The translations under genes were made by a program, and so were the position numbers. 53,686 nucleotides of DNA from Thermococcus sp. (GTDB lineage Archaea > Methanobacteriota_B > Thermococci > Thermococcales > Thermococcaceae): the NCBI RefSeq assembly GCF_015523185.1, contig NZ_WAKV01000078.1:1-53686 (forward strand), given 5' to 3'. Each line of letters opens with the position of its first letter. The first letter of the stretch is position 1. Shown here one piece after another: positions 46,563 through 52,357 of this stretch. Under the pieces are notes generated by a model, which was given only the letters and a program-made list of their open reading frames with translations, searched no databases and was not told the origin of the DNA.

Positions 46563-48287
46563 ATGAAGATGAGGGGTTTAGTCATTGCCTTTGTCCTCCT
46601 GTTCTCCACGATGTCCTTTTCCTCCTCGGTTTTGGGGAAGACGGCATGTCCCCCTGGAATAGACTACCCGAACCCGGTTCTGTTTGAGGTAACCCCCTAC
46701 TCCTCGGGCGACGGCCTAGTTCTCGGGGTTGATGTTTACTCCTTCTACCAGCCCTACGAGGGGATGTGCCCAATCTCCTCTGTAACGGACGAGCTAGACT
46801 GCCTCAGCGCCGATGCCCTCGATTTCTCAGTCCACTATAACGTGACGGGGAACAACGTCACGGGGGAACTAGGCAGGCCCAGTGGAGTCCAGCTTGAAAC
46901 ATACCTCCTTAACGTGACGAACGACACGGTCGTGATTGACGTCAACGGTTCAAGGATTTCCCTCCCCTTCGGGCTTCTCAGGGAATACCTGTCGTCCCTG
47001 AACATTTCGGGTATGCTGGCCGACCACATCTACTCCGACTCCGACAACTGGTTCTTCATTAAGGACTTCAACTTGACCGGTGTGGTCAGGAGAATGAGAG
47101 CCTTCTCCTATGAAGGCAGGTTGTACCTGTACTTCCCTCAGGTCCAGCTCGTTGACTGCAGGTACTTCATACCCGAGAGGTTCTACAGCGGCGGACGTTA
47201 CGTTTCCCCGATTATACCGATGGAGTTCAACGGTTCCGTCCCAATCATCCCGCCTTTAGTCCTCGAATACTCCAACGGAAGCCTGAGGCCGGTCCTGAGG
47301 GTCGAACCTGTAAAGAAGAAAGGCGAGTGGGGTTACTACTACGAATGCGGACTTCCAAACCTTCGGCTCCCCGGGACGGTGAAACCACCCCTTCAACTTT
47401 GGGATGGCCGGAACTACTCCTACGTGTACATCGCCCCCGAGAAGGTCGAGGTTTCGATTAATGGCTTCACGAACGGGACCTTCGCCCTTCTCCTGATGAA
47501 CCTAACCGTCGAGGGAATTCTAATCCCCGGTGCGCCCCAGGAACACGCCAGCATGAGATACACCCTCCTCTTCGGCTACAACGGGAGACCCTTCCAGATA
47601 GACCTGAAACCGATACTCAAGCAATTCAATCCCCCTGAGGAGGACGAATACGGGAACCCTGCCTTCCACTTCAGTGGGGTTGACGACGGTGTCTTCAGCC
47701 TCGGCGTTGCGTTCATCAACGGGAAACCCTACATTGGGGTCGAGGAAAGGGGTTCCGAGAACGTCACCATGATACGCCTCTACCCTGAAAAGAACGAGTG
47801 GATGGCTAATGGCACGGTATCCCTAAAACGATGGGACGAACTTGTGGCGGGTTCCCCAAGGGGAAAATCCCTGGAAAACGTATCCGCCTATGCGAAATAC
47901 TTTCTATCTGTCCCACGCCTTGATTACGTCCCCGCTAATGGTGGAACCTTCGTTTATCCGGAGAGGTATGCCGTAAGCTCCTCCGGACTTCCCAGCGGAT
48001 ACGCGAGGGTCGGTAACAGGATAATCCCACTCTGCTCCATCTGGCCGGTCTACGCGTTCTCGGCCAACGGCACTGCATACGGCCTCTTTCTAGCCGGCGA
48101 CAACTTCACGATTTACCCACCGCTCGTTGAATACCACAAAGCCCGACCAGAAACCACGCCTAAGCCCGAAACCACTCCAACTTCATCGCCCACTGAACAA
48201 ACAGCCCCGGAAAAAGGGGAGTCAATCTGCGGGCCCGGGATTGTGGCTTTAATGGCCCTCCTGGCCCTTGGGTTCAGAGAACGTTGA
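46563..48287 (+). CDS. CGP-CTERM surface protein
   Basis: A 574-residue exported protein. It has an N-terminal signal peptide (MKMRGLVIAF..., cut near residue 26) and at the C-terminus a Thr/Pro-rich stalk followed by ICGPGIVALMALLALGFRER. This Cys-Gly-Pro, hydrophobic helix and basic tail is the CGP-CTERM sorting signal of Thermococcales, probably processed at the Cys for lipid anchoring. The body is beta-rich with many sequons. ATG 46563 follows GGTGAG; the ATG at 46548 is less likely. The ligand or substrate is unknown. Confidence 0.85.
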   Translation: MKMRGLVIAFVLLFSTMSFSSSVLGKTACPPGIDYPNPVLFEVTPYSSGDGLVLGVDVYSFYQPYEGMCPISSVTDELDCLSADALDFSVHYNVTGNNVTGELGRPSGVQLETYLLNVTNDTVVIDVNGSRISLPFGLLREYLSSLNISGMLADHIYSDSDNWFFIKDFNLTGVVRRMRAFSYEGRLYLYFPQVQLVDCRYFIPERFYSGGRYVSPIIPMEFNGSVPIIPPLVLEYSNGSLRPVLRVEPVKKKGEWGYYYECGLPNLRLPGTVKPPLQLWDGRNYSYVYIAPEKVEVSINGFTNGTFALLLMNLTVEGILIPGAPQEHASMRYTLLFGYNGRPFQIDLKPILKQFNPPEEDEYGNPAFHFSGVDDGVFSLGVAFINGKPYIGVEERGSENVTMIRLYPEKNEWMANGTVSLKRWDELVAGSPRGKSLENVSAYAKYFLSVPRLDYVPANGGTFVYPERYAVSSSGLPSGYARVGNRIIPLCSIWPVYAFSANGTAYGLFLAGDNFTIYPPLVEYHKARPETTPKPETTPTSSPTEQTAPEKGESICGPGIVALMALLALGFRER

Positions 48288-49035
48288 GGTACTTATGCAC
48301 CTGGAAGCTTAGCCCGACGTTCTTTTTTCCCATTGTCAGCGCGGCCTCGCGGTAGAACTCCATGAGCCTCTCCTGTGAGATGTCAATCGGTTCCTTGGGC
48401 TGTATCACGAGGGGAGCTAAGTTTTTCAAAAGCCCCGCGTACCAGCGGACGTTTTCGAGCTTGGTCTCCCTCGTGACGACGAGCTTAGCGTAGACCTTTG
48501 CACCCGCATTCCTTAGGATTTTGATGCTTTCCACTTCCCTGAGAACGAGACCTTTCCAGTCTTCCGTGGCCTTGGCCGTCTCGTCCTTTATGTCCACGCT
48601 CGCGTAGTCCACCAGGGGAGCTACCTCCCTGATAAGCTCCGGAAGGCCGCCGTGGGTCTCAAGGAAGTTGTCAAAGCCAAGACTTTTCATGCGCTCCATA
48701 AGGGCCTTCAGCGGCTTCACCTGGAGAGTCGGTTCGCCACCGGTGTAGCTTATCGAGTGAATATCACCGGTATCGAGCCGCAGAACGGCGTTAACGACTT
48801 CATCAACGCTCGCTGGATTTGGCCGGTACTCGAACTTCCCGGTGAAGGGCTCGACCTCGTAGCGCCAGCGGGAAACTCGGGAGGCGTTGATGTACTGCTT
48901 TGAGTCACACCATCGGCAATAGAGGTTACAGCCCGCGAAGCGGACGAAAACCTGCCTCCTCCCGAAGGCGCTCCCGGGGACGCTTCCCCCTTCGCCCTGC
49001 CAGCTGTTGAAGACCTCGGCCATTATGAGTCTCAT
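48274..49035 (-). CDS. queE: 7-carboxy-7-deazaguanine synthase
   Basis: A 253-residue radical SAM enzyme. It has C36-x3-C40-x2-C43 (GCNLYCRWC), the N-terminal MAEVFNSWQGEGGSV stretch that defines QueE, and YTGGEPTLQ. It converts 6-carboxytetrahydropterin to 7-carboxy-7-deazaguanine on the way to archaeosine in tRNA. Its start overlaps the stop of a small upstream gene. Its end overlaps the convergent CGP-CTERM gene by 14 bases. Confidence 0.93.
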   Translation of the reverse strand: MRLIMAEVFNSWQGEGGSVPGSAFGRRQVFVRFAGCNLYCRWCDSKQYINASRVSRWRYEVEPFTGKFEYRPNPASVDEVVNAVLRLDTGDIHSISYTGGEPTLQVKPLKALMERMKSLGFDNFLETHGGLPELIREVAPLVDYASVDIKDETAKATEDWKGLVLREVESIKILRNAGAKVYAKLVVTRETKLENVRWYAGLLKNLAPLVIQPKEPIDISQERLMEFYREAALTMGKKNVGLSFQVHKYLNVL

Positions 49036-49298
49036 GTTCTCAGCTCCTCCACGTTCAACCCCTTCACCTTTTCGCTCACGAAACTCTCGAGTATCTCGAC
49101 TTTAACTCTTCTCTCCTCCCCGGTCATATCCGCCATGAGCTGAACGGCCCTCGCGTAGTCCCAGAGCCGTCTCTTTGCCTCGGGGGTAACGCTCTCGGCC
49201 ATAACTATTAGCTCCCGCTCCTCAGGATGGGCACTCATCCATTCCGCAACCTTCCTCGCATCTCCCTCATCGAATACGCCTCTCTTTTTGAAGAGCAC
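49032..49298 (-). CDS. small protein upstream of queE, unknown
   Basis: An 88-residue, mostly helical, charged protein (EGDARKVAEWMSAHPEERELIVMAES...). I recognise no family. GTG 49298 is chosen because GGGAGGTG lies just upstream; a GTG at 49307 would sit inside that site. It overlaps the queE start by four bases and so is probably cotranscribed with it. A role in the same pathway is only inferred. Confidence 0.55.
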   Translation of the reverse strand: MLFKKRGVFDEGDARKVAEWMSAHPEERELIVMAESVTPEAKRRLWDYARAVQLMADMTGEERRVKVEILESFVSEKVKGLNVEELRT

Positions 49299-49319
49299 AC
49301 AAGTCACCTCCCATTATTG

Positions 49320-49368: not shown

Positions 49369-49869
49369 TTAGAGGTATTTCAGCAGGACCTCAACGGCCT
49401 CCTCGAAGATTTCCCGGTCTTTGCCGTCCAGAACCCCCTCAAGGTAGTTCAGCGCAACGAGGTTGATTATGATGTAGGCAGTGTTTCTGTCGAGGCCGAG
49501 GGAATAGGCATCGTAGTAAACCCTCTCTTCGCCTAAGGCCTCGTTGAGCATCTCGACGAAGTAGTTAATCTCCTCAACGCTCAGCTCGTCCCATCTGCTC
49601 TCGAGCTCGTCGAGGTAGCGCTCCATTACCCTGAGCGTTTCGAGGTCGAGTTTCAGCGTTCCCCGAAAGTACGGGAACTCGCCGACGCGGAAGAGCTTTA
49701 TTCCCTCCTCGTCTCTCACCGCTATGCTGTCCCAGAGGACGATGCCCTCAACGGGGTTATGACCGTACTTGCTAGCCAAGTAGGAGAAGCGCTCAAGGGC
49801 AAAGTCTATGTCGTCTATAAACTCCTCCCCATCATGGAAGTGGATTATCTTGCTCACTGTTCCAGCCAT
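49369..49869 (-). CDS. conserved hypothetical protein
   Basis: A 166-residue acidic protein, mostly helical in its second half (LETLRVMERYLDELESRWDELSVEEINYFVEML). The first part has IIHFHDGEEFIDDIDFAL and IVLWDSIAVRDEEGIKLFRVG, a beta-rich segment. It carries no cysteine and no membrane helix. ATG 49869 follows GGTG with a six-base spacing. I recognise no family; it looks like a protein confined to Thermococcales. Confidence 0.55.
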   Translation of the reverse strand: MAGTVSKIIHFHDGEEFIDDIDFALERFSYLASKYGHNPVEGIVLWDSIAVRDEEGIKLFRVGEFPYFRGTLKLDLETLRVMERYLDELESRWDELSVEEINYFVEMLNEALGEERVYYDAYSLGLDRNTAYIIINLVALNYLEGVLDGKDREIFEEAVEVLLKYL

Positions 49870-49919
49870 TTTTTGCACCGGTTCACGGTAGGTGGGGCAG
49901 TATAAAAATGCTTTGAGTG

Positions 49920-50621
49920 TTATTCCTCAGTTCTGTTCCCCCATTTGGAAAGCCACGCAAGGTCGCACCGACGATTTAGCTCAAAGTATTCATCGGAAAC
50001 CTCTCGAAACGAGACGACATTCCAGCCGGAGTCAAAGGTTACCTCATAAAACGTTCCGTTTTCGTTTTCACAGTTATATCCCCTGCAAACAGTGGTGTAG
50101 TTGGCGTGAAAGAGGAAGGTTATGGTCCTGTTCGGCCAGAGGCAGTACGTCAAAACCCGGCACTTATGGGCAAGATTATAACGACAGTAATCCAGGCCCT
50201 TCTTTTCTACCCTGTCCCACACCTCTTCACATCTGTTTGCCAGTTCGTTATAGGTGTTTGAGTGTACTTTTCTGAGCGAAATCAGGCCCAGATTTGTCAG
50301 GTTGATGTTTACCGCGTAAATAGTGCCGTTAATGTTCGAGCAGGTGTATCCTTTGCAATTTATCGTGTAGTTGCTGTAAACTAAAACAGTAGCGGTTTCG
50401 TTTGGCCAGATGCAGAAGGTCGCTACGCTCCACTGCCAGTTGGGATGAAGGCTCTGGGCGTAGTCAAGGGCCTTTGTTGTTATGTTGTCCTGAAACCTGA
50501 GTTCAGAGAGCGTGTAGACATTCCAGTCCTGTTTTTCCCCATCTTTCTCGTTAGCATGAATGAAAATCAGCAAAGACAGAAAGAGTAAAAGGAAGAAGGC
50601 AGATACAGCTTTTCTGTTCAT
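49920..50621 (-). CDS. secreted protein with internal tandem duplication
   Basis: A 233-residue protein with an N-terminal signal peptide or anchor (to about residue 23). The rest is two copies of a ~90-residue module, about 45-135 and 140-223. Both have the pattern C-x-W-P-N, N-Y-T, C-[KR]-G-Y-x-C, N-G-T and a final R-C. The cysteines align as C70/C160, C89/C179, C94/C184 and C131/C219, so each module likely has two disulfides; copy two has an extra pair, C146 and C154. It starts within the stop of the upstream secreted-protein gene. Function unknown. Confidence 0.65.
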   Translation of the reverse strand: MNRKAVSAFFLLLFLSLLIFIHANEKDGEKQDWNVYTLSELRFQDNITTKALDYAQSLHPNWQWSVATFCIWPNETATVLVYSNYTINCKGYTCSNINGTIYAVNINLTNLGLISLRKVHSNTYNELANRCEEVWDRVEKKGLDYCRYNLAHKCRVLTYCLWPNRTITFLFHANYTTVCRGYNCENENGTFYEVTFDSGWNVVSFREVSDEYFELNRRCDLAWLSKWGNRTEE

Positions 50622-51676
50622 CCTTCTACCCTCACATGAACGTTGTCTGGGTTTTTAATTAAGTAAAACGGCCTATTCAGTTTCACAAAGTGGTTTATAA
50701 TATCCTCCGGAATCCCAAGCTCTTTTCCAAATTCTATGAGCCCCTTAGGAAGGATAACATAGTATTCTATAGTTCGTCCTTTATAAGGTATCTTCTCAAT
50801 GATAACGTTGCCCCTGTATTTATAGGGTATTACTATAACCCCATTTTTCAATGTAATGGTTGTATCCTTGATGTATCCGCCTTTGGAGCTCAGGATAACC
50901 TTTGCTGGAGGTATTGATGTTATTGAGATTGGTCTGGGATAATCTGGATAATCCCCCATTATATACCATGTTATCGTGGTGTCGGGATTGTCATCGATTT
51001 TGCTTATAAGTTTTATTTCAAACAGTGGATTGTTCTCGTCAACTTCTACGTTAAACCTGAAGTATGTATGAATTTCAGTAGGATCTGTCCCCTGCCATCC
51101 ACCAAGAAATGAACAAAAGTTCCATTTGACGTCCCAATAGTTCTGTGTATGGCTCTTGGAGCTTATGCCCTCAGCCAAGTCATACATTAACTGCCCGATA
51201 TCTTTTGCGGTTGCAACATAAGAGTTAAGAAGATCTAAAGCAACGCTCATGGAGTCATATGCAACTTTTCTAGCAATATTCTCATCGTGTCTGCCGGACC
51301 AAGGATCTGCCCCAGCATAGGAAAGGCTATTGGGATCTGTGAGAATTGCCATGTATCTACTACCTCCAAGCTTTTGGATGATGTACTCATTCTTACATAT
51401 TGGGAATGGATGTCCATAACTGGCCGTTGACTTTCCAATGGTAGATACAACAAAGATATATGTGGGTCGTATTCCTGGTTGGGGTGGAATATAATACTGA
51501 AGTTCCAAGTCTGCGGAGTTGTAAGTTGTGTATCTAACTGTAGTTTGAGGGTCGACGGTGGTTGCGTATTTTATTTTGGACCAATGATATCCCAAGTACT
51601 CTGCACTTACACTTCCAGTCATTGTTCCAATCATTAGCAGTCCCAAAAAGACTGCGAACAGAGACCTCCACTTCAC
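50618..51676 (-). CDS. large secreted protein of unknown function
   Basis: A 352-residue protein with a signal peptide (VKWRSLFAVFLGLLMIG..., cut near a Val-Ser-Ala at about residue 25). The mature part looks beta-rich, with a cysteine in each of two regions and ASYGHPFPICKNEY, WYIMGDYPDYPRPIS and IPYKYRGNVIIEKIPYKG. No family recognised. GTG 51676 is chosen because GGAGGTGA lies just upstream; a TTG at 51703 is not supported. It overlaps the repeat-containing secreted protein downstream (ATGA), so the two probably work together. Both are more AT-rich than the core genes. Confidence 0.6.
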   Translation of the reverse strand: MKWRSLFAVFLGLLMIGTMTGSVSAEYLGYHWSKIKYATTVDPQTTVRYTTYNSADLELQYYIPPQPGIRPTYIFVVSTIGKSTASYGHPFPICKNEYIIQKLGGSRYMAILTDPNSLSYAGADPWSGRHDENIARKVAYDSMSVALDLLNSYVATAKDIGQLMYDLAEGISSKSHTQNYWDVKWNFCSFLGGWQGTDPTEIHTYFRFNVEVDENNPLFEIKLISKIDDNPDTTITWYIMGDYPDYPRPISITSIPPAKVILSSKGGYIKDTTITLKNGVIVIPYKYRGNVIIEKIPYKGRTIEYYVILPKGLIEFGKELGIPEDIINHFVKLNRPFYLIKNPDNVHVRVEG

Positions 51677-51891
51677 CGAGTTCACCTCCACACTGTTCTG
51701 CAATAGATTATATTACACTAATGCTTATAATGTTTTTCTTTTACTTAGAGTAAAAATTCTTTCTTTTTTTTTTCGAGTATAAATTTATTCTAATGATAAT
51801 TTTTCGATTAGAATTATCAAAAAGAAGCCAGAGTAAAAGACTGCACTCTTCTGCTCAGCAAACCTTTTATCACAGTTACTCAACACTCAAT
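51677..51891. other. AT-rich spacer upstream of the candidate RNA
   Basis: No gene is visible. The left part serves the leftward secreted-protein operon (TATA-like CTTATAATG near 51726). Two interleaved inverted repeats occur: TTCTAAT/ATTAGAA (51788-51794, 51807-51813) and GATAATT/AATTATC (51795-51801, 51812-51818). CCTTTTATCAC near 51864 is a TATA box for the candidate RNA. Confidence 0.4.
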
Positions 51892-52142
51892 CGCCCGACG
51901 AGTAGGGGGTTGCGATGACGTCGGGACCCCCAGGGGGGCGACAGCCCAAATGCCCCCCTTCAAACTTCGCGCGGGCGAAGTTTGGCCAAGGTTTGTAGCT
52001 CCTTTTCAGAGCCAAGTTCTTGGGTGGTTTCTTGCTAAATGAGTGTTTTGATATTGAGAATCTGCTAGATTGCGTTTTTTGAGTGGGTTTAACTTTAGAA
52101 TAGACGCCCTTCGGGCGTCGGGAGGGAGTAAACCCTTTTTTA
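51892..52142 (+). ncRNA. candidate structured non-coding RNA
   Basis: About 250 bases with dense perfect stems and no convincing ORF. Stems: CCCGACG (51894-51900) with CGTCGGG (51919-51925); GGGGGT (51905-51910) with ACCCCC (51926-51931), interlaced with the first, so a pseudoknot or a switch; GGGGGGC (51933-51939) with GCCCCCC (51952-51958); a 10-base hairpin CAAACTTCGC/GCGAAGTTTG (51961-51984). It ends in a terminator-like fold. A TATA-like CCTTTTATC lies about 25 bases before the first stem. It does not look like SRP RNA or RNase P RNA. A minus-strand ORF over it is composition-driven. Confidence 0.45.
52085..52141 (+). terminator. two-tier hairpin followed by T-run
   Basis: GGGTTTA (52085-52091) pairs with TAAACCC (52129-52135). 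Inside is a perfect 7-base hairpin GACGCCC-TTC-GGGCGTC (52103-52119). Six or more T residues follow directly. The layout fits the end of the candidate RNA. Confidence 0.5.
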
Positions 52143-52205
52143 AAGAGCTCTTTCAAAGTGTTTTCAGTTTGAAAAATGAAAATTTGGAGTGTGAAACCTA
52201 ACTCA

Positions 52206-52357
52206 ATGGATTCCCTTAAGGAGGAGCTCCGTGCTTTTGGTGAAGCTTTTTCTAGAGCTTCCTTCCCAAGCGCTGGCGGAAAAGTAAGTGCTTTTTGAAA
52301 TTTGCCTTTTTGAAATTTGCAGTCTTCAAAGTGGGTCTTTGTTTATTCGCTCCTTAA
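52206..52357 (+). pseudogene. small ORF with a frame break at a T-run
   Basis: ATG 52206 opens a 30-codon frame (MDSLKEELRAFGEAFSRASF...) that stops at TGA 52296. One extra T in the TTTTT run at 52292-52296 would continue it as FLKFA-FLKFA-VFKVG to TAA 52355, giving ~50 residues. No good ribosome site. It may be a remnant; no family recognised. Confidence 0.25.
52291..52320 (+). repeat. perfect 15-base tandem duplication
   Basis: CTTTTTGAAATTTGC occurs twice in direct succession (52291-52305 and 52306-52320). It lies inside the broken small ORF and would encode FLKFA twice. Confidence 0.85.

What the first reader, a model, noticed from the sequence alone, without database searches (positions are those of the whole stretch)
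51892..52142. Strongly folded candidate RNA with interlaced stems and its own terminator
Within 250 bases there are four perfect GC-rich stems of 6-10 bases, two of them interlaced, then a two-tier hairpin and a T-run. The flanks are AT-rich, and a TATA-like box stands at the right distance upstream. It matches no RNA class that I know (not SRP, RNase P, tRNA, H/ACA or C/D). The interlaced pair (51894-51925 and 51905-51931) could be a pseudoknot or a two-state switch.
Basis: seen in the sequence. Interest (0 to 1): 0.7.

Follow-up and report, generated by a model that had tools for sequence, protein, structure and literature searches.

The report
Known archaeal small RNA, sRk28
The left third of the flagged stretch is the gene for sRk28, a roughly 70-letter folded RNA described in 2011 from a related heat-loving archaeon and still without a known job; the rest, including the supposed terminator, is a separate scattered DNA repeat that normally sits right behind tRNA genes.

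Summary
The stems are real, but the stretch holds two unrelated units.

(1) 51893-51958 is a stand-alone gene for the Thermococcales orthologue of sRk28 (Phok et al. 2011). Identity rests on coordinates: the P. abyssi-sized genome matches at 527797-527730, minus strand, and the published 5' end is 527798. One copy occurs in 75 of 94 Thermococcales genomes and none was found outside. Rfam 15 lacks it. It has a BRE/TATA promoter fixed at -33 to -23, a 7-bp P1 stem interlaced with GGGU/ACCC (H-type pseudoknot), and a 3' hairpin P3. P1 and P3 show compensatory changes (at least 5 and 10 on a host-gene tree). The rival hairpin has none.

(2) About 51962-52300, with the two-tier hairpin and T-run, is a dispersed repeat. 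In sampled copies 42 of 57 start 2-11 nt behind a tRNA gene; sRk28 carries it in 21 of 74 loci. So the RNA does not own that terminator.

The published preQ1-riboswitch label is weak. Downstream genes differ and almost all have a TATA-like box of their own; the QueE-like operon beside the RNA is divergent and is not linked in Pyrococcus. An independent, trans-acting structured RNA fits best. Its partner is unknown.

The parts
51860..51870 (+). BRE/TATA promoter of the sRk28 gene (AAACCTTTTAT; BRE A's at -33/-32, TATA -28 to -23)
   Evidence: Information content peaks at these positions in 74 homologous loci: A at -33/-32, T/A at -28..-24, A at -10, pyrimidine at -1; sequence
51893..51958 (+). 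sRk28 RNA core (about 66-70 nt), predicted +1 = G 51893
   Evidence: One copy in 75 of 94 Thermococcales genomes; conservation falls right after P3; P. abyssi published 5' end 527798 lies next to the homologous +1 at 527797
51894..51925 (+). P1 stem CCCGACG/CGTCGGG (51894-51900 with 51919-51925)
   Evidence: 99.4% of cells paired; pair col 9/32 is C-G 49, G-C 20, U-A 1; at least 5 changes on a host-protein tree
51905..51931 (+). Interlaced helix, conserved core GGGU 51907-51910 with ACCC 51926-51929 (6 bp possible in this genome); forms an H-type pseudoknot with P1
   Evidence: 100% of cells paired in 70 sequences, but only 3 one-sided consistent changes and no two-sided change: compatible, not proven
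51933..51958 (+). P3 hairpin GGGGGGC/GCCCCCC with a 12-nt loop beginning GACA; 3' end of the conserved RNA
   Evidence: 95.9% of cells paired; pair col 50/68 is G-C 33, C-G 27; at least 10 changes on the tree
51962..52300 (+). Dispersed Thermococcus repeat, normally directly behind tRNA genes; not part of the RNA (homology may run to about 52415)
   Evidence: 15 matches to the 51800-52300 query in the own genome and many per relative; 39 of 57 copies 2-11 nt behind a tRNA by ARAGORN, plus 3 visible
51962..51983 (+). 5' palindrome of the repeat AAACTTCGC/GCGAAGTTT
   Evidence: 90% of cells paired over 33 copies; pair 7/16 U-A 17, C-G 16
52085..52141 (+).
   Evidence: Inner stem 97.8% and outer stem 90% of cells paired in 33 copies; the T-run is not kept in other copies
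49369..49878 (-). 169-aa protein of unknown function, divergent neighbour of sRk28 in five of six genera
   Evidence: Within 3 kb of sRk28 in 65 of 74 genomes, 0 of 8 Pyrococcus; no Pfam/NCBIfam family; no PDB fold match at E<=0.001
48274..49035 (-). Radical-SAM protein nearest to QueE (7-carboxy-7-deazaguanine synthase)
   Evidence: Best NCBIfam match TIGR03365 QueE 55 bits, below its 206-bit cut-off; within 5 kb of sRk28 in 62 of 75 genomes

Best explanation
Shown: 51893-51958 is a stand-alone gene for the orthologue of sRk28. It has its own BRE/TATA promoter; the transcript is predicted to start at about G51893 and the conserved RNA ends at P3. It folds into P1 and P3, with a loop-to-tail helix that makes P1 a compact H-type pseudoknot. 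A tRNA-trailing repeat begins 3 nt behind it and supplies the downstream hairpins. Inferred: the RNA acts in trans, as a free small RNA whose invariant loops (GAGUA, UUGCGAUGA, GACA) are read by a protein or a small molecule during growth. It is not a cis riboswitch of a neighbouring gene, nor an antisense guide using that loop. The partner is unknown. The stated confidence covers identity, anatomy and independent-gene status; I hold the trans-acting step at about 0.5.
For: Identity: in genome G064 (1,765,118 bp, the size of P. abyssi GE5) the match is 527797-527730 minus, while the paper gives sRk28 at 527697-527833 with 5' end 527798 and 70/100-nt RNAs. The paper's 'All except Tsi' fits the lack in G078, which has the size of T. 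sibiricus. Promoter fixed relative to the RNA in 74 loci. Compensatory changes in P1 and P3. Conservation stops after P3. Independence: 27 of 28 close same-strand downstream genes have a TATA-like box right behind the RNA (permissive pattern), those genes differ, repeats sit right behind it in 21-30 of 74 loci, and T. kodakarensis dRNA-seq shows an orphan transcript. No perfect complement of the 12-nt loop in 12 Thermococcus genomes other than sRk28 itself and three stray sites.
Against: No function, ligand or protein partner is known, here or in the papers read. The pseudoknot helix has no two-sided covariation. sRk28 has decayed or gone in several lineages (T. sibiricus group, G040, G042, G047), so it is dispensable. 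P. abyssi authors saw no promoter and suggested processing from an operon, although Pyrococcus loci carry an aligned GAAATAAG box. Weak or imperfect antisense pairing was not excluded.
Confidence: 0.85

Rival explanations
1. A preQ1/preQ0 riboswitch (the published suggestion): the pseudoknot binds a 7-deazaguanine and controls a queuosine/archaeosine gene in cis.
For: Pseudoknot shape; suggestion by Phok et al. from a QueC-like neighbour PAB1992; here a QueE-like gene lies within 5 kb in 62 of 75 genomes.
Against: No Rfam preQ1 family matches. The QueE-like operon is divergent, so sRk28 is not in its leader, and in g2, g3 and g6 it is not within 5 kb. The Pyrococcus PP-loop protein matches ThiI better than QueC, and QueC only over its first 61 of 210 positions. 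Downstream genes vary and mostly carry their own TATA-like box.
Confidence: 0.1
2. A two-state switch between P1 and the long hairpin 51905-51931.
For: In this genome the long hairpin is the minimum-energy fold.
Against: The long hairpin has no covariation and loses pair 28/32 in 20 of 70 sequences; folds of the P. abyssi and g4 copies prefer P1.
Confidence: 0.07
3. One RNA of about 250 nt with its own intrinsic terminator at 52085-52141.
For: Hairpin plus six T in this genome.
Against: That hairpin is part of a repeat found elsewhere behind tRNA genes; the repeat is absent behind sRk28 in 44 of 74 loci; the T-run is not kept in other copies; the Northern size is 70/100 nt.
Confidence: 0.08
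4. A leftover or decaying element without present function in this genome.
For: Decayed remnants in relatives.
Against: This copy keeps the promoter and all conserved positions and scores 95.9 bits, like expressed orthologues.
Confidence: 0.05

Closest known systems
sRk28 of Pyrococcus abyssi / Thermococcus kodakarensis (PMC3124441, PMC4247193)
   Same: Same sequence family, same 5' end to within one base, single copy, pseudoknot proposed, absence in T. sibiricus
   Different: Here followed at once by a tRNA-trailing repeat; five-G strand makes the interlaced helix longer than in relatives; two extra genes lie between it and the usual divergent neighbour
preQ1 riboswitches (Rfam preQ1-I, -II, -III)
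   Same: Compact H-type pseudoknot of similar size
   Different: No covariance-model match; not in the leader of a queuosine/archaeosine gene; almost no linker (0-1 nt) between the two 3' strands
chrB-a RNA (RF03078)
   Same: Weak 20.9-bit chance-level match including GGCGACAGCC in this genome
   Different: Not found in 12 homologous loci; gathering score 43.9
SscA / sRk33 and Hgc RNAs of hyperthermophiles
   Same: GC-rich small RNAs of AT-rich archaeal genomes
   Different: No sequence match in Rfam; sRk33 (SscA) lies in the leader of the EF-1 alpha mRNA

Membership tests
sRk28 | Sequence homology and coordinates of the P. abyssi gene | tested here: met
   G064 match 527797-527730 minus against published 5' end 527798; covariance-model match 95.9 bits
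sRk28 | Conserved stems with potential pseudoknot | tested here: met
   pseudoknot helix 100% compatible but without two-sided change
sRk28 | Expressed as a 70/100-nt growth-phase-regulated RNA | not testable with these tools
   Known only for P. abyssi and T. kodakarensis
preQ1 riboswitch | Match to a preQ1 covariance model | tested here: not met
preQ1 riboswitch | Lies in the leader of a queuosine/archaeosine gene | tested here: not met
preQ1 riboswitch | Binds preQ1/preQ0 | not testable with these tools
   needs a binding assay
Box H/ACA or C/D guide RNA, SRP, RNase P, tRNA | Match to Rfam or ARAGORN models | tested here: not met
Antisense guide by the P1 loop | Conserved perfect 12-nt complement elsewhere in the genome | tested here: not met
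   hits are sRk28 itself in 12 Thermococcus genomes, plus three stray sites
Intrinsic terminator of the RNA | Hairpin plus T-run kept behind the RNA in homologues | tested here: not met

The most novel reading that the evidence does not exclude
sRk28 founds a class of stand-alone pseudoknotted archaeal RNAs that work in trans with a dedicated protein or metabolite, and a dispersed repeat family that attaches itself behind tRNA genes recognises the sRk28 gene in the same way, perhaps by a shared feature of how stable RNA genes are transcribed or processed.
Probability: 0.3. Interest if true: 0.65.

Novelty: already known. Interest (0 to 1): 0.35.

Why it matters
It settles what the flagged structure is and takes away the two features that made it look strange (length and own terminator). 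Data from 94 genomes also weaken the only published idea of its function that I found, the preQ1 riboswitch, and turn sRk28 into a well-defined orphan RNA of 66-70 nt with a deletable gene in a genetically tractable archaeon (T. kodakarensis). The repeat behind tRNA genes, for which I found no description, is a by-product worth its own study.

Tried and rejected
Rfam at gathering and at E<=10: only chance hits; the chrB-a hit did not recur in homologues. Homologues outside Thermococcales: none in 21 further genomes of the phylum, none in the GTDB contig scan, none in viral contigs, plasmids or phages. Antisense targets of the loop: none conserved. A small ORF starting at ATG 51915 was considered from the alignment and set aside: no stop inside the RNA, indels in the loop, and paired changes in P1 and P3. 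An IS200/IS605-type reading of the repeat (TTAC target) was considered and dropped, since the bases before it vary. The 169-aa neighbour as an obligate protein partner: no family, no PDB match, and it persists where sRk28 is lost.

Full report
What was checked. The opposite strand folds as well, so the strand had to be settled by comparison.

Two units. A search of the stretch in the own genome and 60 genomes of the same genus split it. Bases 51889-51961 match one place per genome, mostly at 85-99% identity. Bases 51961-52300 match many places per genome at about 70%. A search with the core alone found it in 76 of 94 Thermococcales genomes, one of which (G040) is only a 26-base piece. A covariance model built on 70 copies found one full copy in each of 75 genomes and a weak remnant in a few others. 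There is none in 21 further genomes of the phylum, and a pattern scan of GTDB contigs returned only Thermococcales.

Identity. In G064, whose contig has 1,765,118 bases (the size of P. abyssi GE5 as I recall it), the copy lies at 527797-527730 on the minus strand. Phok et al. give sRk28 at 527697-527833 with its 5' end at 527798, Northern sizes of 70 and 100 nt, little or no RNA in stationary phase, a putative pseudoknot, and presence in 'All except Tsi' (PMC3124441). G078, with the size of T. sibiricus as I recall it, lacks it.

Anatomy. Aligned on the RNA, 74 loci share A's at -33/-32, a TATA box at -28 to -23, A at -10, and a pyrimidine at -1 before G+1; in the window +1 is 51893. Conservation falls right after P3, and T-runs are found within 12 nt of P3 in only 23 of 74 loci, so P3 rather than a terminator marks the 3' end. 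P1 pair 9/32 is C-G, G-C or U-A, and P3 pair 50/68 is G-C or C-G. On a tree of the neighbouring 169-aa protein these pairs changed at least 5 and 10 times. The GGGU/ACCC helix is kept in all 70 sequences with three one-sided changes, so it is compatible but not proven. The alternative long hairpin has no covariation and a broken pair in 20 of 70, although this genome's five Gs make it the minimum-energy fold.

The terminator. The palindrome at 51962-51983 and the two-tier hairpin at 52085-52135 belong to a repeat whose copies share both. Of 57 copies examined in relatives and the own genome, 39 start directly behind a tRNA gene by ARAGORN and 3 more do so by eye. In one complete relative 16 of 30 tRNA genes carry it within 420 nt, plus 3 by eye. 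It stands behind sRk28 in 21 of 74 loci, with 9 more showing only its 3' module, all in the window's genus. The six T at 52136-52141 are not conserved.

Function. Three observations argue against a cis riboswitch. Downstream genes differ between lineages: topoisomerase-like, HTH-CBS, DUF357, DUF2284, helicase, PP-loop (the topoisomerase, HTH-CBS and helicase names are read from the translations and were not tested against a family library). In 27 of 28 close cases a TATA-like box stands between the RNA and the gene (a permissive pattern in AT-rich DNA, so supportive only). Repeats sit between RNA and gene in many genomes. The RNA is divergent from a 169-aa gene in all genera but Pyrococcus (65 of 74 genomes within 3 kb) and within 5 kb of a QueE-like gene in 62 of 75. 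That gives the published preQ1 idea a new circumstantial hint, but the operon reads the other way and the link is missing in three genera. PAB1992-like proteins match ThiI better than QueC. The invariant 12-nt loop has no conserved perfect complement. I therefore favour a free RNA acting through a protein or small molecule, at about even odds, and leave the partner open.

Dispensability. Remnants or losses, several at the same place next to the 169-aa gene, occur in several lineages, so the RNA is conserved but not essential.

Noticed in passing
window 51962-52300; L009-L028, L139-L178, L179-L208: Dispersed, structured repeat family of Thermococcus that starts a few bases behind the CCA end of many different tRNA genes; 19 of 30 tRNA genes sampled in one complete genome carry it or a subfamily. 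Three literature searches gave no description.
   Followed up: partly
L120, L121, L122, L123, L210, L211: Decayed or deleted sRk28 copies, several still next to the 169-aa gene, including the T. sibiricus lineage and a 15-base deletion in L122: repeated loss of the RNA.
   Followed up: partly
window 49369-49878 minus: 169-aa protein conserved across Thermococcales, no Pfam/NCBIfam family; AlphaFold model pLDDT 91.7 without a PDB fold match (best E 0.17).
   Followed up: partly
window 48274-49307 minus: QueE-like radical-SAM gene with a 91-aa gene of unknown function in the same direction as the 169-aa gene.
   Followed up: partly
window 49920-51703 minus: Two genes (233 and 361 aa, no family) lie between the 169-aa gene and sRk28 in this genome, whereas most relatives have about 50-90 bases there.
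   Followed up: no
L160 and L161, just before the repeat copies: GC-rich hairpin CGGGGGGCTAACGCCCCC between a tRNA gene and the repeat, unexplained.
   Followed up: no
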